From: Clostridiales bacterium
GTDB lineage: Bacteria; Bacillota; Clostridia; Lachnospirales; Bianqueaceae
Assembly: GCA_024689505.1 (NCBI GenBank)
Contig: JAILDJ010000177.1
Coordinates: forward strand, 1 to 64,000
Direction: 5' to 3'
Length of the DNA stretch: 64,000 nucleotides
Shown here: positions 8,119 to 60,292 of the stretch, piece by piece
Layout: every line of letters starts with the position of its first letter
Position numbering within the stretch: position 1 is the stretch's first letter
The notes under the pieces: generated by a model
The model's database searches: none
Seen by the model: only the letters and a program-made list of their open reading frames with translations
Told to the model about the DNA's origin: nothing
Made by a program: the position numbers and the translations under genes

Positions 8119-9897
8119 TTATTCGAACTGACTTGCGTACAGCCTATAGTAGAAGCCCTTTGCGGCCATCAATTCATCGTGGGTGCCCTGCTCGACCACA
8201 TCTCCATGATCCACCACCAGGATGTTGTCCGCGTTCTGGATGGTCGAAAGACGATGAGCGATGACGAAACAGGTGCGCCCTTTCATCAGATTGCGCATGG
8301 CTTTCTGCACCTGACGTTCCGTACTGGTATCGACATTGCTGGTGGCCTCATCCAGGATCAGCATATGGGTATCGTACAGCATGGCCCGTGCGATGGTCAG
8401 CAGCTGTTTCTGTCCCTTACTGATATTTCCGCCGTCTTCGCTGACGATGGTATTGTACCCTTGGGGCAGACGCATGATATAGTTATGGATGCGTGCCGCT
8501 TTGGCTGCCGCCACGACTTCATCCATAGTCGCGTTTTCCTTACCGTAGGCGATATTATCAAAGATCGTACCATTGAAGACCCAGGTATCCTGCAGGACCA
8601 TCGCATAGTTGCGCCGCAGGGATTCCATGGTATATTCATCATTTTGCTTCCCATCCACGCGGATGCTTCCGGTGTCAGGATCATAGAAGCGCATCAGCAA
8701 GTTGATGATCGTAGTCTTGCCGGCGCCGGTCGGTCCAACGATGGCGATCGTCTGGCCCGGATCCGCCTTCAGGTTGAGGTTCTTCAGGACGATCTTGCCC
8801 GGCAGGTATCCGAAGCTTACATCTTCCGCTTCCACATCACCATCCGCTTCGACCAGTTCCACAGCGCCGTAGATATCGGCCGCTTCTTCCGGCTCATCCA
8901 GCAGCTGGAATACACGCTCTGAAGCCGCCAGCGCGCTGTAGATCTCGTTGATGATATTGGCGATCTCATTGATCGGACCGCTGAATTTGCGGCTGTACAG
9001 CACGAAACTGGAGATCTGGCCCAAGCCGACGATCCCTTTCATGTACATGATCGCACCGCCCATACCGATGGCTGCCAGACCCACGTTGTTGATCAGGCCG
9101 ACGGTCGGACCCATGGTCATACCCATGCTGTCCGCGTCTCTGTAGGCAACAGCCGCATCACGGTTGATCTTGCTGAAGTTTTCGCAGACCTGATCCTCAT
9201 GCGCATAGGCAAGGATCGTTTTCTGCCCGTTGAACATTTCTTCGGCAAACCCGTTCATCACGCCGTACGCCGCGCTTCGTTTGGCATACAGCGGACGGGT
9301 CTTACGACCACGATAGCGCGTGAACAAGATAGCCGCGGGGATCGTAAAGACCATACAGCAGACCAGCGGCAATGAGATCGCGCACATCATGATGAAACTG
9401 CCGACGACCGTGACCGTACTGGTCACGATGTGCACCACGTCTGTAGAAAGGCTCATGGAGACCACGTCGATATCGTAGGAAACACGGCTGATGATATCGC
9501 CCGCCTGGTGCCTGTCGAAGTAACCGACTGGCAGTGTCATGAGTTTATTGAAAACATCACGCCGCATATTCTGCGCCACATGGCGGCCGACCCGCATCAT
9601 ACCGACCTGTACGATGAAGCTCAGGATACCGCTGCTGACATAAAAGATCAGCATGAGCAGCGCATAGTGCATGACCAGTTTCAGATCGATCTTCCCGGCG
9701 CCGGCGCTTGCTGCGTCGATCGCTTTACCTGCGAAGTTCGGCCCCATCAGGTTGCCCAGGTTGCTGGCGAATGCACAGAAGATGAACAACAATACAAGAA
9801 ATTTATACTGCATCAGGTACTTGATGATGCGCCTGAGTGCTCCTTTAGCGTCTTTCGGTTTGGCTTTGACGCCATCTCTGCCTCTTGGACCCGGCAT
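8119..9897 (-). CDS. ABC exporter half-transporter with canonical Walker B
   Basis: This 592-aa fused membrane-ATPase protein has six transmembrane segments in the first 320 residues, then a nucleotide-binding domain. Walker A is GPTGAGKTT, Walker B is LILDEATSNVD with the catalytic Glu, and the H-loop His is in IAHRLST. The signature is the variant ISKGQ. It is paired with the following half-transporter (9915-11666), which has the opposite pattern, so together they form a heterodimer of the LmrCD/BmrCD/TM287-288 type. The N-terminal stretch PRGRDGVKAKPKDAKG is basic and cytoplasmic. A MarR gene at the operon head suggests drug-responsive control. Confidence 0.93.
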   Translation of the reverse strand: MPGPRGRDGVKAKPKDAKGALRRIIKYLMQYKFLVLLFIFCAFASNLGNLMGPNFAGKAIDAASAGAGKIDLKLVMHYALLMLIFYVSSGILSFIVQVGMMRVGRHVAQNMRRDVFNKLMTLPVGYFDRHQAGDIISRVSYDIDVVSMSLSTDVVHIVTSTVTVVGSFIMMCAISLPLVCCMVFTIPAAILFTRYRGRKTRPLYAKRSAAYGVMNGFAEEMFNGQKTILAYAHEDQVCENFSKINRDAAVAYRDADSMGMTMGPTVGLINNVGLAAIGMGGAIMYMKGIVGLGQISSFVLYSRKFSGPINEIANIINEIYSALAASERVFQLLDEPEEAADIYGAVELVEADGDVEAEDVSFGYLPGKIVLKNLNLKADPGQTIAIVGPTGAGKTTIINLLMRFYDPDTGSIRVDGKQNDEYTMESLRRNYAMVLQDTWVFNGTIFDNIAYGKENATMDEVVAAAKAARIHNYIMRLPQGYNTIVSEDGGNISKGQKQLLTIARAMLYDTHMLILDEATSNVDTSTERQVQKAMRNLMKGRTCFVIAHRLSTIQNADNILVVDHGDVVEQGTHDELMAAKGFYYRLYASQFE

Positions 9898-9914
9898 ATC
9901 CGCACTCCTTTCTA

Positions 9915-11666
9915 TTACTGACCGATACTGCCCATCTGGATATCATAGATCTCCTTATAGGCAGGACAGTTTTCAAGCAATTCTTCATGAGACCCGTATC
10001 CGATGCAGCGGCCATTGTCCATGACCAGGATGTTCGTCATGCTCATGACACTGGAAACACGCTGCGCGATCATGATCAAGGTCGTACCGGCATGATGCTC
10101 GGCGATCGCTTTGCGCATCGCGGCATCGGTCTTATAGTCCAGCGCGCTGGAACTATCGTCCAGGATCAGGATCTCCGGATGGCCGGCTAAAGCGCGGGCG
10201 ACCAGCAAACGCTGTTTCTGCCCGCCGGAAAGGTTGGCACCGCGGATCGTGGCTTCATACTGCAGCCCTTCTTCCAGACTGTCGATATACTCCGCCGCCA
10301 TGGCATCTTCCACCGCACCACGGATGTCCGTCTCTTCCAGACCGCGTCCGAAATCGATGTTTTCATACAAGGTATCTTTGAAGACCATGTCGTTCTGGAA
10401 GACCGGGCCGAACTTGCGGCGCAGTTCATCTTTATCATAGGTCCGGACGTCGCGGCCATCTACAAAGACACCTCCCTCATCCGCATCATAGAAACGCATC
10501 AGCAGGTTGATGATCGTGGTCTTGCCGCAGCCCGTCGGACCGATGATGCCCAGGCTCTCTCCCTTTTTGATCGCGAAATCGATATCTTCCAGAGCCTTTT
10601 CCGACTTGCCGCCAGTAAAGTGCTGTTCGTCCACGGTACTGTAATTGAAATGGACATGTTCAAAGCGGATCTGCTCGTCTCCCGTGGGCTTGAGCGCCTC
10701 TTCTTCCGAAAGGATGTGCTGATCCGTCTCGGTCTGCAGGACCAGGTCGATACGGTTGGCGCTGGCACTGGCACGGCTCATCGACATAAAGATACGGTTC
10801 AGACCCATGATGCCCATGGTGATCATGTTGAAATAGGTAAGGAATGCAAGGATGACACCCGGCTGCATCTGACCGGCATTGACCCGGCGCGCACCGAAGA
10901 TGATGACCAGTGCGAGACCGGTGTTCAGGCACAGCTGCATGAACGGCCATGGAATGGACATGATCGTACTGGCTTTGATATCACTGTCCGCCATGGCTTT
11001 ATTGGCGCCGGCGAAGCGGTTCATTTCGAATTCTTCTTTGCTCAGTGCTTTGACGACACGGATGCCCGTGATGTTCTCACGCATGATGCGTACTACAGAG
11101 TCCAGCTTCTGCTGCACGACTGTGAACATGGGGATACCTTTCGATGTTACGAACAGGATGATGCCCAACAAGAACGGAATCATGATAATGAGGATCAAGG
11201 ACAGCTTCAGGTCCATGGACATCGTCATGATAAGGCCGCCGGTCAACATGATCGGCGCGCGGACACACAGGCTCTGGATCTGCTGAACGGCCGTCTGCAC
11301 GTTGTAGCTGTCGCTGGTCATACGGCTGATCAAACTAGGCAGCCCGAATGCATCGAACTGGCTGCCGGAAAGGTTCTCCGTTTTGACGAAGAGCGCCTGC
11401 CGTACGTCGTAGCTGACACGATGTGCGTTGAAGACCGCCTTGCGGTTGGCCATGACGTTGAACTGCCGGCACAGGAGCGCCGCGACGAACATCATCAGGC
11501 CCCACAGGATGACCTGTTTCAGGTCGCCCAAAGGCACGATGTCATCGACCATGTGCTCCAGGATATAAGGCAGTGTCAGTTCAGCCATCGTACCCAGCAG
11601 TTTCAGGAAGATGGCCAGGGCGATCGCCCACTTGTACTTTTTGATGGATCGGAAGATCAGTTTCAT
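9915..11666 (-). CDS. ABC exporter half-transporter with degenerate catalytic site
   Basis: This 583-aa half-transporter has a six-helix membrane domain followed by an ATPase domain. Walker A is GPTGCGKTT and the signature is a canonical LSGGQ. The Walker B acidic pair is LILDDSSSALD (Asp in place of the catalytic Glu), and the H-loop reads IAQRVSS (Gln in place of His). These are the hallmarks of the non-catalytic member of heterodimeric exporters such as TM287. It lies 14 bases after marR and 17 bases before its partner. Multidrug or peptide export is the likely job; the substrate is not shown. Confidence 0.93.
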   Translation of the reverse strand: MKLIFRSIKKYKWAIALAIFLKLLGTMAELTLPYILEHMVDDIVPLGDLKQVILWGLMMFVAALLCRQFNVMANRKAVFNAHRVSYDVRQALFVKTENLSGSQFDAFGLPSLISRMTSDSYNVQTAVQQIQSLCVRAPIMLTGGLIMTMSMDLKLSLILIIMIPFLLGIILFVTSKGIPMFTVVQQKLDSVVRIMRENITGIRVVKALSKEEFEMNRFAGANKAMADSDIKASTIMSIPWPFMQLCLNTGLALVIIFGARRVNAGQMQPGVILAFLTYFNMITMGIMGLNRIFMSMSRASASANRIDLVLQTETDQHILSEEEALKPTGDEQIRFEHVHFNYSTVDEQHFTGGKSEKALEDIDFAIKKGESLGIIGPTGCGKTTIINLLMRFYDADEGGVFVDGRDVRTYDKDELRRKFGPVFQNDMVFKDTLYENIDFGRGLEETDIRGAVEDAMAAEYIDSLEEGLQYEATIRGANLSGGQKQRLLVARALAGHPEILILDDSSSALDYKTDAAMRKAIAEHHAGTTLIMIAQRVSSVMSMTNILVMDNGRCIGYGSHEELLENCPAYKEIYDIQMGSIGQ

Positions 11667-53802: not shown

Positions 53803-53825
53803 ACCATTTACTCAAAACGAAAAAA

Positions 53826-53851
53826 GGAGTCTTTCAAGACTCCTTTTTTTT
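53826..53851. terminator. Bidirectional terminator overlapping a gene end
   Basis: GGAGTCTT-tc-AAGACTCC with an A-run before and eight T after. The stop and last codons of the HEITH protein gene (ending 53834) lie in the stem, so its C-terminal KKKES is encoded by terminator sequence. Confidence 0.88.
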
Positions 53852-54664
53852 GTACAGCAAAGGGATCAAACCCAATGGATCCTCCCCTTTGTACACATCT
53901 ATGATCTTCTTGTATTGCATCATTGTGTTGCTTACCCAAGCTGCCATCGTCTCCGGGTCGTCCGTGTAGTTTTCCAGACGTCCGCCCACATAGCGTCCCC
54001 CTTGGATCCCAAGGAACAGGCTTTCCAGTTCCGGATCGAAACATCCAAAGGCAGCGTATAGTCCCACCATGTCGGCGATCAGCTCATCCCGCACTGCATC
54101 CACGTCATCCGGATACAAACGCCGGCATATCACGTGTGTGATCTCATGGTACCTGCGGATCGTGTCGGAATGCAGGATCCAATCCTCTTCTGAACACCCC
54201 GCCGCCACGGCGTCCACATCACTGTAGGGCCCTCGGGACAGAACGATCAGTTGGTCGACATAATTTCCTTTATTTGCAGTGAAGCGTTTGAACTCTGCGT
54301 TTTGTTCTTCTTCAGGGAATTGTGCCAGATGCGCATGGATCCTGGGCCAGTTGAACACCTGCAGCATAGCGGCTCCCTGGCTCCGGGGGATCTGAACGTC
54401 AGGTCCGTTTTTGGCTGCCATAAAGCCGCGCATGACCCGTTCGAAATCCTGCCGGTTTCCCAGTGTTGCCAAACAGATCGGACCGGCCGGCGTGTCTGTG
54501 ATCTCAAGGCGGTCCATAGGATCTCCATGATAGTGGTCCAGTTCTTGAGACTTCGGCATATCACCACGCAGAACCACATTGCGGTACGCTGCCTGCTCAT
54601 CCTTGTCCGGGTCCAGATACAGCAGCGGATACTGTGCTGCCAATCTTTCGATCACTGTGCTCAT
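53834..54664 (-). CDS. Unknown protein with HEITH zincin-like motif
   Basis: This 276-aa soluble protein belongs to no family I can name with confidence. It has H173EITH177 followed by DE194LIAD, the His-Glu-x-x-His plus downstream Glu arrangement of zinc metallopeptidases. It has no signal peptide or membrane segment, so it would act in the cytoplasm. It overlaps the double-glycine peptide gene by 4 bp (ATGA) and is last in the exporter operon. A role in trimming, modifying or protecting against the peptide is plausible. It has no obvious cyclase, radical-SAM or lanthionine domain. Confidence 0.8.
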   Translation of the reverse strand: MSTVIERLAAQYPLLYLDPDKDEQAAYRNVVLRGDMPKSQELDHYHGDPMDRLEITDTPAGPICLATLGNRQDFERVMRGFMAAKNGPDVQIPRSQGAAMLQVFNWPRIHAHLAQFPEEEQNAEFKRFTANKGNYVDQLIVLSRGPYSDVDAVAAGCSEEDWILHSDTIRRYHEITHVICRRLYPDDVDAVRDELIADMVGLYAAFGCFDPELESLFLGIQGGRYVGGRLENYTDDPETMAAWVSNTMMQYKKIIDVYKGEDPLGLIPLLYKKKES

Positions 54665-54882
54665 ACTCTTTTCGTACCTGAAAGATCCGGTCCTGTATGA
54701 TCTGCCTGGATCTCTTCCGGAAAGACCGTCACGCCGCCGGCGGCCATATCAAGATCTTCCAGATCCAGTTCTTCTGTCATCTGCTCCATCAGCCGCCTTT
54801 TCAGTTTCTGTTTATGGCCAGGATTCGGAAACGCAGTGTTTCTGATCAGATCTTCCACGTCTTTTTCACTTCGTGCTTTCAT
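54661..54882 (-). CDS. Double-glycine leader peptide, candidate exported precursor
   Basis: This 73-aa peptide has a charged helical leader (about 6-45), then LDLEDLDMAAGG (39-50), the classic GG cleavage site of peptides exported by C39-peptidase ABC transporters. The predicted core VTVFPEEIQADHTGPDLSGTKRV is 23 residues, acidic-leaning and proline-containing. It has no Cys and few Ser/Thr, which argues against a lanthipeptide. Its ribosome site GGGAGG lies 6 bases before the ATG. It sits between the sigma factor and the HEITH protein, downstream of a C39 exporter. A signalling or bacteriocin role is open. Confidence 0.85.
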   Translation of the reverse strand: MKARSEKDVEDLIRNTAFPNPGHKQKLKRRLMEQMTEELDLEDLDMAAGGVTVFPEEIQADHTGPDLSGTKRV

Positions 54883-54927
54883 GGCACACCTCCCATCCGA
54901 TCTATACTTACCCTAATGATTTTCGTC

Positions 54928-55383
54928 CTATATACAATCCGGCACATGGACGATCTCAGCGATCTCAGAAAACTTAAGTTCCATGACACAGCGCATGTTG
55001 AGCAATTCTCGGTCTTCCGGATCCAGCTGCACATATAATCGCATCACTATGTCAGAATCCATGATCTGATCGGTGAAATCTCCGTTCGGGTCTGCCTGCT
55101 GCCATTCTTCCGGAAGATCTGTCCGTTTGGCATAGGCTGCTGATCGCATCAGATTGACCGCCTGATTGTGACAGATCCTGGTCAGCCAGGTCCGCATGGA
55201 AGCTTTCCCGGCGTCGTATCTGCTGAAGTTTGTATATGCTTTGACAAACGTTTCCGCAGTGACGTCTTCCGCATCCTGCTTGTTCATCAGCAGCATGAGC
55301 GCATACTTGTATATGCTGTCATAATATGTGTCGTAAACATCGATAAAATTCTCCCCTTCATACGGTCGACCTAAATCTCTCAC
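54928..55383 (-). CDS. ECF-like sigma-70 factor, truncated in region 4
   Basis: This 151-aa protein has region 2 (YYDSIYKYALMLLMNKQDAEDVTAETFVKAY, then RTWLTRICHNQAVNLMR) and most of region 4 (LDPEDRELLNMRCVMELKFSEIAEIVHVPD). It stops before the DNA-recognition helix. A change of frame at about 54936 would continue VYRTKIIRVSIDRMGG and end in a TGA overlapping the peptide's ATG. This suggests a recent frameshift, or less likely a naturally short sigma. The GTG start overlaps the exporter stop (GTGA) and has AGGAG upstream. Its probable targets include this operon or peptide genes elsewhere. Confidence 0.85.
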   Translation of the reverse strand: MRDLGRPYEGENFIDVYDTYYDSIYKYALMLLMNKQDAEDVTAETFVKAYTNFSRYDAGKASMRTWLTRICHNQAVNLMRSAAYAKRTDLPEEWQQADPNGDFTDQIMDSDIVMRLYVQLDPEDRELLNMRCVMELKFSEIAEIVHVPDCI

Positions 55384-57584
55384 GCTGGTTGCTCCTGCGT
55401 ATTTGTATCCAGTCTCTGCCTTTCTACAAGATCAGCGAAGAACCCACCTTTGGCGATCAGTTCTTCGTACGTCCCCTCTTCTGTAATATGGCCTCCATCC
55501 AATACCAGGATGCGATCGCAATGACGGATCGTTGAAAGCCGGTGCGCGATGATCACACGGGTGCAGCCCATCGCATCCAGCGCTTCCGAGACCTGTCGCT
55601 GCGTCTTATTGTCCAAGGCGGAAGTCGCCTCATCGAAGATCAGCATCTTGGGTTTCGGCGCGATCGCACGGGCGATCATGATACGCTGCCGCTGGCCGCC
55701 GGATATGCCTCCTTGTCCCTCGGAGATCATCGTATGCATCCCCATGGGCATGCGTCGGATATCCGCAGCGATGCCGGCCTTTTCCGCCGCTTCCCAGGCA
55801 TCATCCAAGGTCAGCTCCGGCGCGGAGATCACGATATTGGAATAGATGTCGCCCAGGAAAAGACCTGCATCCTGTGTCACTGTACCGATCTTCTTGCGCA
55901 GCGATGGCCGGTCGAGTCGTTCCAGATCTTTTCCATCATAATAGACAGCGCCGCGCTCCGGTTTTTCAAAACCGAGCATCAGACGGACCAGCGTGGATTT
56001 GCCGCAGCCGGTTTTGCCCACTACAGCAACATATTCGCCGGGTCGGATCTTCAACGACAGGTCGTTCAGGATATACGGCCCATCCTCGCTATAGCGGAAC
56101 GTTACATGATTCAGTTCGATCGCGCCGGAGATCGCCGTAACGATCTCTTTATTCTCTGCCGTCTCCGGTTCTGTTTTCAGGAAAGGCTCCGCCATCTCCA
56201 GGATCGGCTTGATCCTGGCCGCGGACAGTGCGATGCCTGAGACGGACATGAAAGCGCCCATCAGCATACCATATGCCGCGGTGAATGCAAAATACGATGA
56301 CTGTCCGATCTGACTTTTGACCGCTATATAATACATAACGATCGTAGATACGAGACTGATCGCTGTAGAAATCACACTGTTGATCCTGATGAACATCGGC
56401 GGACTGTACGTAAGCTCAGCCCCTTGTGTGAACAGGTCCAGCCATTTGGCAAAGACACGCTTCTCCGCTCCCGCAAGCTTGATCTTCCGCACACCGGTGA
56501 TCAAAGAGAATGTCATGCCAGATTCAGCCGCTGAAAGCTCCATTTGTCTCCGACTCAGCCGGATCTGCACCAGGGCTGAAACGATAGAGAAGCACACTGT
56601 GACCAACACGATGATGATAGACGGTATCACCAATGACGGGGCGAAATGAAAGATCTGCGATACGTACAGAAGCGAAGTGATGGATGTCAGGCCTGTCGAC
56701 ATGACCATGCTCAACAGCATATTACAAAGCTGATTGACCGACATGGCGCGGCTCTTCAATTCACCGGGACTGTACTGGCGGAAAAAGCTGGCCGGCAGAG
56801 CCATCAGACGCGCCATCATAGAGGCCTGTACGCCAAGAGACGTTTTGGTCGTGAGCCGGTTTTCCAGAAGGCTCCGCGTACTGCCGATGAGCTGCGAGGA
56901 TAAAGATACACAGATCATACAAACGGAGATCGCGATCAAGGCACTGGTCCGGCCGCTGGCCAAAACGGGACCCGTCAAAGCTTTTGTGATCCTTGGCGTA
57001 AACATGCCGACCACCGTGACCGCAATCGTCGCCGCGACGATCAAAATGATATCGCTCATGGAAACGCAGCGTTTCATGTACAACAGAAGATCCGGTATCC
57101 TCAGGGATTTCTGCGGCAAAGGGCGATAGAAGCAGACAGCTTCCCGCTCAAAAAGCCCTTCTGTCTTTTTATTGACTCTGGTTTTGCGGCCGGTCTTCGG
57201 ATCGTTGAAGACATACCCCGCGAAAGTACCGGGCAGCAATGTGACCGGCAGCCCCTCTTCCTTCGTAAAGGCCAGGATCGGGCCATACGCATCCTTGTAC
57301 CAGCCTTCCGTGAGTTCGATCGCACGACGCATCAGTCCATGCGGCCGCAGACAGTAATCCAGCTGCTCATCCACTTCCTTGATGGAATCCGGCAGTTCTA
57401 CTGTCTTGCAATGATAATACTTCAATATTTCATCGATCGCACCCTTGGTCATGATCCGTTCATCGGCGAATTTCTCCGCCATGCGGTGGCCCATCACGAC
57501 GCCTGCCACACGGATGAACGAATCCTCCAGTAGCTGTTGATCGGCATTACGCCGCTCCTCGATCTGATTCTCAAACCAACCCAT
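55380..57584 (-). CDS. NHLM-type exporter permease/ATPase, family 2
   Basis: This 734-aa ABC protein has an N-terminal region of about 160 residues without peptidase residues, typical of the second NHLM/NHLP bacteriocin exporter family. Six transmembrane helices follow (about 165-450), then an ATPase with Walker A GKTGCGKST, signature ISGGQRQR, Walker B MLIFDEATSALD and H-loop IAHRLST. It starts 10 bases after the C39 exporter gene, its likely partner, and overlaps the sigma gene by 4 bp. All catalytic residues are intact. Confidence 0.92.
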   Translation of the reverse strand: MGWFENQIEERRNADQQLLEDSFIRVAGVVMGHRMAEKFADERIMTKGAIDEILKYYHCKTVELPDSIKEVDEQLDYCLRPHGLMRRAIELTEGWYKDAYGPILAFTKEEGLPVTLLPGTFAGYVFNDPKTGRKTRVNKKTEGLFEREAVCFYRPLPQKSLRIPDLLLYMKRCVSMSDIILIVAATIAVTVVGMFTPRITKALTGPVLASGRTSALIAISVCMICVSLSSQLIGSTRSLLENRLTTKTSLGVQASMMARLMALPASFFRQYSPGELKSRAMSVNQLCNMLLSMVMSTGLTSITSLLYVSQIFHFAPSLVIPSIIIVLVTVCFSIVSALVQIRLSRRQMELSAAESGMTFSLITGVRKIKLAGAEKRVFAKWLDLFTQGAELTYSPPMFIRINSVISTAISLVSTIVMYYIAVKSQIGQSSYFAFTAAYGMLMGAFMSVSGIALSAARIKPILEMAEPFLKTEPETAENKEIVTAISGAIELNHVTFRYSEDGPYILNDLSLKIRPGEYVAVVGKTGCGKSTLVRLMLGFEKPERGAVYYDGKDLERLDRPSLRKKIGTVTQDAGLFLGDIYSNIVISAPELTLDDAWEAAEKAGIAADIRRMPMGMHTMISEGQGGISGGQRQRIMIARAIAPKPKMLIFDEATSALDNKTQRQVSEALDAMGCTRVIIAHRLSTIRHCDRILVLDGGHITEEGTYEELIAKGGFFADLVERQRLDTNTQEQPA

Positions 57585-57594
57585 AGGACCCCTC

Positions 57595-59772
57595 CTACTC
57601 GCTCGCTACCAACTCTGCGTACGCTCCGCCCTTAGCCATCAGTTCGTCATGTGTTCCGCGTTCGACCACATTGCCGTGCTCGAGAACGATGATCTCGTCG
57701 CAGTCACGGACGGTGGACAAGCGGTGGGCAACGACGATGCAGGTGATACCGCGATCGCGGATCGCTTTGACGACTTCGTATTCGGTCCTGGCATCAAGTG
57801 CGCTCGTGGCCTCATCCAGGATGATGATCATCGGATCCTGGGCCAGCACGCGGGCGATCTCAAGGCGCTGCCGCTGACCGCCGGAAAGATTCTTTCCTCC
57901 ACTGGTCAGTTTGTGCTGATACCCGCCGGACAGACGAATGATATCATCATGGATCTGCGCGTCTCGTGCCGCCATGATCATTTCGAAATCCTGGATGGAT
58001 TCATCCCACATTTTGATATTGTTCGCGACGGTATCCTCGAACATGATGATGTCCTGATCGACCACCGCCAAGGAACCGACGATGACCTCGCGCGGATAGG
58101 CTTCACGAGGCTTCCCGTCAAAAAGGATCTCGCCGCTCCACGGCTGATACAGTCCGGAGACCAGCTTCGATATGGTCGATTTGCCGCAGCCGGAAGCACC
58201 GACCAGCGCGATCCGGTCGCCGGTCTTCATTTTCAATGAGAAATCACGGATCAACGGTTCTTCCAATCTGGAATAACCGAATGTAACGTTCTTCAGTTCG
58301 ACGTTTCCGCGCAGTTTGGTCATGGTCTTGACTTCCGTGTCCTTCTCTATGACGTTGGGATCCTCCGGATACTCCATGACGTCTTCGACGCGTTCCATCT
58401 GCGTGCGCATCTCCTGGATGGTCTGTCCGGCACTGACCAGCGTCATAGCCGGTGCCATGAAGGAGCCCAGGAAACCCTGGAACATCATGACGGCGCCAAG
58501 CGTGAACCGCCCCTGCATCGTCATCCAGATGCCGACGATGAGGACCGCATAATTGGCGAGCGTGCTGAAGAATGCCGGTACCATACCGATGAACTGGTTG
58601 GTCTTTGCGGCTTTCACATTCTGTGCGTTGACGGAAGCCTGGTAGCCCGCCCATTTCTGGAAGTACCCATTCTCCGCGCCGCTTGATTTGATCGTCTCGA
58701 TCATGCTGATACCCGTGACTGTCGTGGCTTCCAACTTGCCAGCGTCACGCATCTGCACGCGGGTGATATTCATGCGCTTGTTGGAGATGATCCTGGACAT
58801 GACGATATTGACGATCAACGTGACAAGACCGATCAGCGTGAGCATCGCACTCTGCTTGAGCATCAGCACCAGATAGAAAATCATCATCACCGTATTGAGC
58901 AGCAACGGCGCGAATGTGCCGACCAAGGTGCCCGCGATGGAGGCATTCAATCCCAGACGGGCCTGGATGTCCCCCGCCAGGCGCTGAGAAAAGAATTCGA
59001 TGGGCATCCGCAATATCTTCCACATGTAGGTCGTACTGCCGATGACCGCCATTTTGCCATTGATCTTGAGGGAATAGATCGCCTGTGCCCAGGCTACGAT
59101 CAGCTGGATCACGGCCAGGATGGCTAAAAATGTTATGAATGGATACAGCCAGTTGCTGTTCGTTCCCGTCAACAATCGGTCCATGAAGATACGGGACGTA
59201 ACGGAATTGGCGATGCCGAACAGATAGGTGATGGCTGTCGTGAGCATCACAAAAGCGACCGCCGCTCCTGCGCCGATCAGACGCTTGCGCGCAAAGGCGA
59301 TCGTGCTCTTCGGTTTGCCCTCGGGCACAAAATCTTTGGATGGGACCGGGATCAGCGTGACACCGGTAAAGGACGCATCGAACTCGTCCATCGTAACTTT
59401 AACGACGCCGCGTGCCGGGTCGTTCAGATAGGCGTATTTGCCCTTGAACCCATTCAGGACCACGAAATGGTTCATGTTCCAGTGGATGATGCAAGGGAAT
59501 TTGCCGGATTCCCGGATCGAACGCACACTGTAGCGATATGCAGTCACATCAAATCCGTGATGCTGTGCCGCCAGATAGATGTTCTTGGCCTTTGAACCGT
59601 CACGGGAAACACCGCAGTCTATGCGCACCTGCTCCAGTGGGACCCATTTGCCGTAATAAGCCATGACCATGGCCAGTGCTGCAGCGCCGCATTCCAGCGC
59701 TTCCAACTGCATGACCACAGGTACTTTGGCTACGCCCTTGGTGCGCGTTGGTTTCACTTTTATTCCAGCCAT
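57595..59772 (-). CDS. C39-peptidase ABC exporter (NHLM/NHLP family 1)
   Basis: This 725-aa protein joins a cytoplasmic C39 peptidase (about 15-140), six membrane helices and an ATPase. The peptidase triad is complete: Cys28 in LEALECGAAALAM with Gln22, His102 in WNMNHFVVL, and Asp118 in YLNDPARGV. The ATPase has GASGCGKST, LSGGQRQR, IIILDEATSALD and VAHRLST. The peptidase would cleave after Gly-Gly during export, and the 73-aa peptide in the same operon has exactly that site. It starts 7 bases after the HlyD-like gene. Confidence 0.95.
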   Translation of the reverse strand: MAGIKVKPTRTKGVAKVPVVMQLEALECGAAALAMVMAYYGKWVPLEQVRIDCGVSRDGSKAKNIYLAAQHHGFDVTAYRYSVRSIRESGKFPCIIHWNMNHFVVLNGFKGKYAYLNDPARGVVKVTMDEFDASFTGVTLIPVPSKDFVPEGKPKSTIAFARKRLIGAGAAVAFVMLTTAITYLFGIANSVTSRIFMDRLLTGTNSNWLYPFITFLAILAVIQLIVAWAQAIYSLKINGKMAVIGSTTYMWKILRMPIEFFSQRLAGDIQARLGLNASIAGTLVGTFAPLLLNTVMMIFYLVLMLKQSAMLTLIGLVTLIVNIVMSRIISNKRMNITRVQMRDAGKLEATTVTGISMIETIKSSGAENGYFQKWAGYQASVNAQNVKAAKTNQFIGMVPAFFSTLANYAVLIVGIWMTMQGRFTLGAVMMFQGFLGSFMAPAMTLVSAGQTIQEMRTQMERVEDVMEYPEDPNVIEKDTEVKTMTKLRGNVELKNVTFGYSRLEEPLIRDFSLKMKTGDRIALVGASGCGKSTISKLVSGLYQPWSGEILFDGKPREAYPREVIVGSLAVVDQDIIMFEDTVANNIKMWDESIQDFEMIMAARDAQIHDDIIRLSGGYQHKLTSGGKNLSGGQRQRLEIARVLAQDPMIIILDEATSALDARTEYEVVKAIRDRGITCIVVAHRLSTVRDCDEIIVLEHGNVVERGTHDELMAKGGAYAELVASE

Positions 59773-59779
59773 GTCCCAC

Positions 59780-60202
59780 TCACCTGCTCGTCAATAAGAA
59801 TTCGATCGGATGCAGCTGCTCCGTGACAACGACGCCCTTATAGGTCCCATCAGGAAGATCCACCGTGGTCTGACCGATGATACGGCCATACGCATCCTCC
59901 TCAGCTATCCGGATTGTCGTTTCCTGCCCTTCGACCCTCAACGGCATGTCTTTGGCAAGATGCCCGTTAGGGGTCACGATCGTTGCCTCGTTTTGCTCGA
60001 CAACAACAGTCGCATCTACCGTGGTCTCCAATGTGCCGACGGCAGACCATACCAGGATCCCTGCCAGCAGCAGAATGACAGCAGCCAGCACGACCCAGAT
60101 ACCCGGATTTGTCACGCGCAGATAATCCGTGAGCTGTTCCGGTGAAGAAATGCGATCCAAGGTTTCCTTTCGGAATATGCTTTTATGCTCGCTCTTTTCC
60201 AT
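59780..60202 (-). CDS. Short HlyD-like NHLP system secretion protein
   Basis: This 140-aa membrane-anchored protein has an N-terminal cytoplasmic segment (FRKETLDRISSPEQLTDYLRV), one helix (about 35-57, WVVLAAVILLLAGILVWSAVG) and a small extracellular beta domain. The start matches NHLP bacteriocin secretion proteins. Those are usually much longer, with coiled-coil hairpins to cross a second membrane. The short form fits a one-membrane cell. It is the first gene of the operon. Confidence 0.85.
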   Translation of the reverse strand: MEKSEHKSIFRKETLDRISSPEQLTDYLRVTNPGIWVVLAAVILLLAGILVWSAVGTLETTVDATVVVEQNEATIVTPNGHLAKDMPLRVEGQETTIRIAEEDAYGRIIGQTTVDLPDGTYKGVVVTEQLHPIEFLLTSR

Positions 60203-60263: not shown

Positions 60264-60292
60264 ATTATACAGGAGGCATATCCTGAATTCAA
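60264..60292 (-). promoter_or_regulatory. Promoter of the peptide-export operon
   Basis: On the minus strand TTGAAT (60287-60292), 17 bases, TATAAT (60264-60269). It is a vegetative-type promoter, not an ECF-type one, so basal expression does not need the operon's own sigma factor. Confidence 0.72.

What the first reader, a model, noticed from the sequence alone, without database searches (positions are those of the whole stretch)
54661..54882. Cys-free GG-leader peptide with an acidic 23-residue core
The core VTVFPEEIQADHTGPDLSGTKRV lacks Cys and has few Ser/Thr, so standard lanthipeptide or thiopeptide chemistry is unlikely. It may be released unmodified as a signal, or modified by the HEITH protein. 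The leader is unusually long and basic (KQKLKRRLMEQM) and could also contact the adjacent sigma factor, coupling export to transcription in the manner of an anti-sigma. That last idea is speculative.
Basis: inference. Interest (0 to 1): 0.7.

Follow-up and report, generated by a model that had tools for sequence, protein, structure and literature searches.

The report
Sigma-linked exporter-leader peptide, partly decayed
A real 73-residue bacterial peptide carries a tag for a peptide exporter and belongs to an unnamed family that almost always travels with a particular transcription (sigma) factor gene in bacteria that have that exporter, so it may link export to gene control, although here its partner gene is broken.

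Summary
The ORF is real (ribosome-binding site, ATGA overlap with the next gene, homologues) and sits in a six-gene NHLM (NHLP bacteriocin export) operon: short HlyD, C39-ABC1, ABC2, ECF sigma, peptide, DUF7005 (HExxH). No Pfam or NCBIfam model matches it. It belongs to an undescribed family (16 members collected): a conserved N-terminal helical segment, a C39-recognition-like motif, and a short, variable, Cys-free tail. An ECF sigma gene is adjacent in most loci, and an NHLM exporter is in every member genome checked, even when far away. Tree and distance tests indicate that the N-terminal part tracks the sigma, not the transporter. Only four members keep Gly-Gly; twelve have AA or AG, and dedicated precursors lie beside some of them. 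Here the pair looks decayed: the sigma lacks its region-4.2 helix, a sister species deleted 393 bp between 10-bp repeats (sigma region 4 and peptide leader), and the operon has a sigma-A-like promoter. A second peptide class beside another sigma clade shares only the motif.

The parts
54661..54882 (-). peptide gene (73 aa)
   Evidence: ORF; RBS and ATGA overlap; family profile
54784..54867 (-). conserved N-terminal segment, residues 6-33, two predicted helices
   Evidence: alignment A3; AF2 helices 6-15 and 21-33 at moderate confidence
54733..54768 (-). C39-recognition-like motif LDLEDLDMAAGG, residues 39-50
   Evidence: sequence; consensus L-12, E/D-8, L-7, G-2, G-1 from PMC6363468
54664..54732 (-). 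23-residue variable tail ('core')
   Evidence: tail identity across family hardly better than shuffled; AF2 disordered
54889..54894 (-). ribosome-binding site GGGAGG
54928..55383 (-). ECF sigma factor, 151 aa, truncated: ends KFSEIAEIVHVPDCI, lacking the region-4.2 recognition helix and C-terminus
   Evidence: Pfam Sigma70_r2 hit, r4 partial; alignment with 13 relatives
53834..54664 (-). DUF7005 (PF22541) protein with invariant HExxH...DExxAD, 276 aa
   Evidence: Pfam 144.5 bits; alignment A8
55380..57584 (-). NHLM ABC2 permease/ATPase
   Evidence: TIGR03797 724.3 bits, above cut-off 709.4
57595..59772 (-). NHLM ABC1 with C39 peptidase
   Evidence: TIGR03796 905.3 bits, above cut-off 853.3; Peptidase_C39
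59780..60202 (-). short HlyD-like adaptor, 140 aa
   Evidence: N-terminal match to TIGR03794 below cut-off; short forms are usual in the order
60264..60292 (-). sigma-A-like promoter TTGAAT-17-TATAAT before the operon
53820..53849 (-). terminator-like hairpin after DUF7005
54713..54722 (.). 10-bp repeat TCTTCCGGAA, one end of the deletion seen in the sister species
55106..55115 (.). 10-bp repeat TCTTCCGGAA, other end of the 393-bp deletion

Best explanation
The peptide is the window's copy of an undescribed family of small sigma-paired proteins that carry an exporter-docking leader motif. Proposed working: the N-terminal helical segment pairs with its cognate ECF sigma (anti-sigma or co-regulator), and the LxDDELxMxAGG motif docks on the C39 domain of the NHLM exporter. 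Docking, and cleavage or export where the site is Gly-Gly, would change how much peptide is free to hold sigma, so transcription would follow exporter availability (compare FlgM export by the flagellar export apparatus). Shown: the ORF, family, motif, sigma linkage, NHLM co-occurrence, and parallel divergence with sigma. Inferred: binding to sigma, docking, direction of the effect. In this genome the sigma is truncated and the operon has its own sigma-A-like promoter, so the regulatory circuit is probably lost or vestigial here and the peptide may persist only as an exporter substrate.
For: ECF sigma gene within about 0.5 kb in window, L029, L094, L095, L098, L100, L101, L102, L108, L109, at about 0.9 kb in L104 (DUF7005 between), and within about 5 kb in L096, L097, L099, L103. 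All member genomes checked have NHLM ABC1, including those where it is not adjacent: L102 (G714), L108 (G588), L107 (G692). Eleven members found without regard to NHLM were all NHLM-positive, against 52 of 392 genomes in the order sample. All class A sigmas form one clade (100/98) separate from class B sigmas. Partial Mantel, peptide N-part with sigma given ABC1: 0.81, p = 0.0001; with ABC1 given sigma: -0.28. L108 and L102 have the sigma-peptide pair with no NHLM genes within 10 kb. The cassette sigma-peptide-DUF7005 occurs as a block in another position in L109. The 12-residue C39-like motif is kept in nearly all members. A second class with a different N-terminus beside another ECF sigma clade shares the motif.
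Against: No structural or experimental evidence for binding: the AF2 fusion had pTM 0.33. Adjacent genes are inherited together, so the parallel divergence with sigma need not mean contact, and the partial correlation weakens to 0.24, p = 0.08, without window, L109 and L029. Most members have AA or AG at the cleavage site, so export is doubtful for them. In L096, L097, L099 and L103 the sigma is 3.5-5 kb away, and L107 has none within 10 kb. In this genome the sigma is truncated.
Confidence: 0.45

Rival explanations
1. It is an ordinary exported peptide precursor: C39 cuts after GG and the acidic 23-mer is released, unmodified or changed by DUF7005, as a signal or bacteriocin.
For: Canonical AAGG and C39 spacing; the only GG-leader ORF seen near the exporter in window and L109; leader conserved and tail variable; ATGA coupling to DUF7005, which elsewhere sits beside other GG peptides (L015, L016, L019).
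Against: 12 of 16 members have AA or AG instead of GG, while separate canonical precursors lie in some of the same clusters (L104 Nif11 type, L098). Tails are short (11-32 aa), polar and unlike bacteriocins. The pair persists without adjacent exporter genes (L102, L108).
Confidence: 0.3
2. It is an exporter-docking regulator or chaperone (a C39 decoy, inhibitor or gate) that never touches sigma; sigma is only co-transcribed.
For: Motif kept while GG is lost in most members; NHLM always present in the genome.
Against: The N-terminal part tracks sigma, not ABC1; the sigma pair is kept where the exporter is elsewhere.
Confidence: 0.12
3. In this genome it is a decaying remnant of a sigma-peptide module with no present function.
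For: Partner sigma lacks region 4.2; sister species lost 393 bp in frame between 10-bp repeats; the other two species of the genus searched have no hit to the exporter; sigma-A-like promoter before the operon.
Against: Peptide ORF, RBS, GG motif and coupling to DUF7005 are intact. The remaining sigma part (Ka/Ks 0.158), DUF7005 (0.165) and ABC2 (0.056) still show purifying selection between the two species.
Confidence: 0.13

Closest known systems
NHLP / Nif11-type leader peptide precursors (TIGR03793, TIGR03798) with the NHLM export system (TIGR03794/03796/03797; Haft et al. 2010, PMC2887384)
   Same: Exporter genes; C39 motif ending in Gly-Gly; conserved leader, hypervariable tail; some members lie beside such precursors.
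   Different: No match to either leader model; short unrelated N-terminus; tied to an ECF sigma; Gly-Gly replaced in most members; tail without Cys and poor in Ser and Thr.
Double-glycine leader substrates of C39 ABC exporters (LahT substrates, PMC6363468; ComC-type pheromones)
   Same: Spacing of L-12, E/D-8, L-7, G-2, G-1 in the window copy.
   Different: Relatives have AA or AG at -2/-1; the sigma-linked N-terminal segment is an addition.
Anti-sigma factors of ECF sigmas; FlgM, removed by the flagellar export apparatus (analogy from general knowledge)
   Same: Small protein encoded beside its sigma and possibly removable by an exporter.
   Different: No sequence match to any anti-sigma family; no membrane segment seen; binding untested; the exporter is a C39 ABC transporter, not a flagellar one.

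Membership tests
NHLM (NHLP bacteriocin) export system | TIGR03796 C39-ABC1 above cut-off | tested here: met
   905.3 vs 853.3 bits
NHLM (NHLP bacteriocin) export system | TIGR03797 ABC2 above cut-off | tested here: met
   724.3 vs 709.4 bits
NHLM (NHLP bacteriocin) export system | TIGR03794 HlyD adaptor above cut-off | tested here: not met
   33.8 vs 156.2 bits, 140 aa; short forms of 69-200 aa are common in the order
NHLP or Nif11 leader precursor | match to TIGR03793 or TIGR03798 | tested here: not met
   No hit for the window peptide at E up to 1; relatives likewise
Double-Gly leader peptide (C39 substrate) | L-12, E/D-8, L-7, G-2, G-1 next to a C39 exporter | tested here: met
   Window motif LDLEDLDMAAGG; rule from PMC6363468. 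Gly-Gly present in only 4 of 16 family members
Double-Gly leader peptide (C39 substrate) | cleavage after GG and export | not testable with these tools
   Needs protein work
Anti-sigma factor | binds and inhibits its cognate sigma | tested here: inconclusive
   AF2 fusion pTM 0.33; only genetic linkage and parallel divergence
Anti-sigma factor | recognised anti-sigma domain | tested here: not met
   No Pfam hit
Sigma-peptide family described here | conserved N-terminal segment plus C39-like motif plus ECF sigma linkage | tested here: met
   Profile and neighbourhoods

The most novel reading that the evidence does not exclude
A peptide-exporting ABC transporter controls an ECF sigma factor by docking, and in Gly-Gly members exporting, a small leader-like anti-sigma protein: an ABC-exporter counterpart of FlgM control. 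At least two N-terminal sigma-specific modules share one exporter-docking motif.
Probability: 0.3. Interest if true: 0.85.

Novelty: new variant of a known kind. Interest (0 to 1): 0.6.

Why it matters
If right, gut and rumen Clostridia that export peptides through NHLM systems have a direct way for the exporter to report on itself to the transcription machinery, without a membrane sensor. It would name a family absent from Pfam and NCBIfam, explain why ECF sigma genes sit in these clusters, and warn genome miners not to count every GG-like leader ORF beside a C39 exporter as a bacteriocin. Intact pairs exist in relatives such as Butyrivibrio sp. MC2013.

Tried and rejected
Single-sequence searches with the peptide found no relative; profiles were needed. 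The first five-row alignment was too divergent for the collection scan; a four-row one worked. A joint alignment of sigma and peptide rows misplaced the peptides on sigma, so the fusion model was made with sigma rows only; it was uninformative. Profile search of solved structures gave only a weak hit to a chain named LRD-7A. Weak profile hits in G409, G333, G390, G488, G638 and G698 match the motif only or are remnants, and were not counted. Common origin of the class A and class B N-termini: hhalign aligns only the motif, so they are kept apart. The idea that sigma truncation is a sequencing slip was dropped: the missing helix is in no frame downstream (read), and the sister species has a separate lesion. 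No paper was found that describes a sigma link for these systems; the library is open-access only.

Full report
Observation. The ORF at 54661-54882 (-) is as described: MKARSEKDVEDLIRNTAFPNPGHKQKLKRRLMEQMTEELDLEDLDMAAGG/VTVFPEEIQADHTGPDLSGTKRV. It has a GGGAGG ribosome-binding site, and its stop overlaps the start of the next gene (ATGA). It is not a chance ORF, because a family can be assembled around it (below). The leader is not long by the standards of this export system (NHLP and Nif11 leaders average 83 and 70 residues, PMC2887384) and is basic only in the KQKLKRR patch.

Setting. On the minus strand the genes run: HlyD-like 140 aa (59780-60202), NHLM ABC1 with C39 peptidase (57595-59772; TIGR03796 905.3 bits, cut-off 853.3), NHLM ABC2 (55380-57584; TIGR03797 724.3, cut-off 709.4), ECF sigma (54928-55383), the peptide, and DUF7005 (53834-54664; PF22541, HExxH). 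The block lies between a sigma-A-like promoter TTGAAT-17-TATAAT at 60292-60264 and a terminator-like hairpin at 53849-53820. Both are consensus matches only, in a region where the scan finds about as many as in shuffled sequence.

Relatives. The single sequence finds nothing. I therefore read the neighbourhoods of 58 further NHLM ABC2 places found in a sample of 392 genomes of the order. Small ORFs near the ECF sigma genes in L029 and L070 share its layout. A profile built from those and the window ORF found L014 and L071. The five-row profile found G057. A scan of about 85,000 genomes with a four-row profile returned 12 loci, 11 of which hold a family member, all Lachnospiraceae including Butyrivibrio sp. 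MC2013 and Pseudobutyrivibrio. A 13-row profile in 397 Lachnospiraceae genomes added L107, L108 and L109. Some loci are the same place seen twice (L014/L104, L070/L094, L071/L096, L091/L099, L101/L106). Sixteen distinct members were used.

Anatomy of the family. First comes an N-terminal segment, consensus DVExILKNADFTxGSDHKERLRxxLF. After a linker comes a 12-residue motif, typically L-x-D-D-E-L-E-M-x-A-[AG]-[AG], then an 11-32-residue polar tail without Cys. Mean pairwise identity is 0.39 (N-part), 0.47 (motif) and 0.21 (tail; shuffled 0.18). Four members have Gly-Gly at the cleavage position (window, L102, L104, L109). The others have AG (L098, L100, L101) or AA. The published C39 rule is L-12, L-7, a hydrophobic residue at -4 and GG, GA or GS (PMC6363468), so the window copy fits (with Ala at -4) and most relatives depart only at the scissile pair. 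In L104 and L098 the same clusters hold separate canonical precursors (Nif11 type by TIGR03798 in L104; three GG ORFs in L098).

Sigma link. An ECF sigma gene lies within about 0.5 kb in ten members, at 0.9 kb in L104 with DUF7005 between, and within 5 kb in four more; L107 has none within 10 kb. L102 and L108 have the pair with no NHLM gene within 10 kb, but both genomes, and that of L107, hold an NHLM ABC1 elsewhere. One sub-threshold remnant without the motif (G698) is in a genome without NHLM. Eleven members were found without reference to NHLM, and all eleven genomes are NHLM-positive, against 52 of 392 in the order sample (about 2e-10 at that base rate, 4e-5 even at 40%). The sigma tree puts all 15 partner sigmas in one clade (support 100/98), apart from the sigmas of the second peptide class. 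Distance matrices for 13 loci: N-segment with sigma r 0.83, with ABC1 0.42; partial correlation with sigma given ABC1 0.81 (p 0.0001), with ABC1 given sigma -0.28. Dropping window and L109 leaves 0.56 (p 0.002); dropping L029 as well leaves 0.24 (p 0.08). Joint inheritance of neighbouring genes could give the same pattern.

A second class. In L037, L038, L048, L051, L055 and L062, and in two independent finds, L121 and L122, small ORFs of the form LFDYQKFAxNxxLxxVI...LSDDDLEFVAAAG lie directly beside another ECF sigma clade. All seven genomes hit by the profile are NHLM-positive. Only the motif aligns with the first class (hhalign 90%). The L122 member ends in a zinc-ribbon tail like that of a GG peptide in L054.

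State of the pair here. The window sigma ends at KFSEIAEIVHVPDCI, while 13 relatives continue through the region-4.2 helix, and no downstream frame holds the missing part. In the sister species G001 the sigma and peptide are fused by a 393-bp in-frame deletion exactly as long as the distance between two TCTTCCGGAA repeats (54713 and 55106). It removes sigma from about residue 93 and the peptide up to its tail, and DUF7005 remains intact. Between the two species Ka/Ks is 0.056 for ABC2, 0.165 for DUF7005 and 0.158 for the remaining sigma part. L109 has a complete sigma and the same block sigma-peptide-DUF7005, placed before HlyD. So the exporter and DUF7005 are kept while the sigma-peptide pair erodes in this genus.

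Judgement. The precursor reading is possible for the window copy. The family-level evidence points rather to a sigma partner with an exporter-docking tail. Contact with sigma, docking on C39 and export are all inferred; the fusion model could not test contact.

Noticed in passing
window 53834-54664; L104 9125-9991, L109 8718-9581, L015 8470-9330, L016 8705-9427, L017 8386-9324, L019 8350-9189: DUF7005 (PF22541) keeps HExxH...DExxAD invariant and repeatedly sits beside GG-leader peptides, radical SAM genes or NHLM exporters: a candidate metal-dependent RiPP-cluster enzyme or peptidase without known function.
   Followed up: partly
window 59780-60202; L014, L019, L027, L029 and others: The NHLM HlyD adaptor in this order is usually cut to 69-200 aa (N-terminal membrane part and little else), perhaps because these are single-membrane bacteria.
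   Followed up: partly
L122 6688-7008: A class B sigma-linked peptide carries a zinc-ribbon tail very like the core of a GG peptide in L054, joining the regulatory and precursor types in one protein.
   Followed up: no
L048, L051, L054, L071, L094-L097, L103: STAS, HATPase_c_2 and PP2C-like genes (partner-switching type) are common in these NHLM clusters, suggesting another layer of sigma control.
   Followed up: no
L108 7048-13435: A sigma-peptide pair lies beside pilT-like, YifB/ComM-like and DprA-like genes, so this sigma may serve competence or pili rather than peptide export.
   Followed up: no
L033, downstream of ABC2 (8176-10377): Tandem GG-leader ORFs with zinc-ribbon-like cores follow NHLM ABC2; similar cores occur in L015, L016, L054 and L070.
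   Followed up: no
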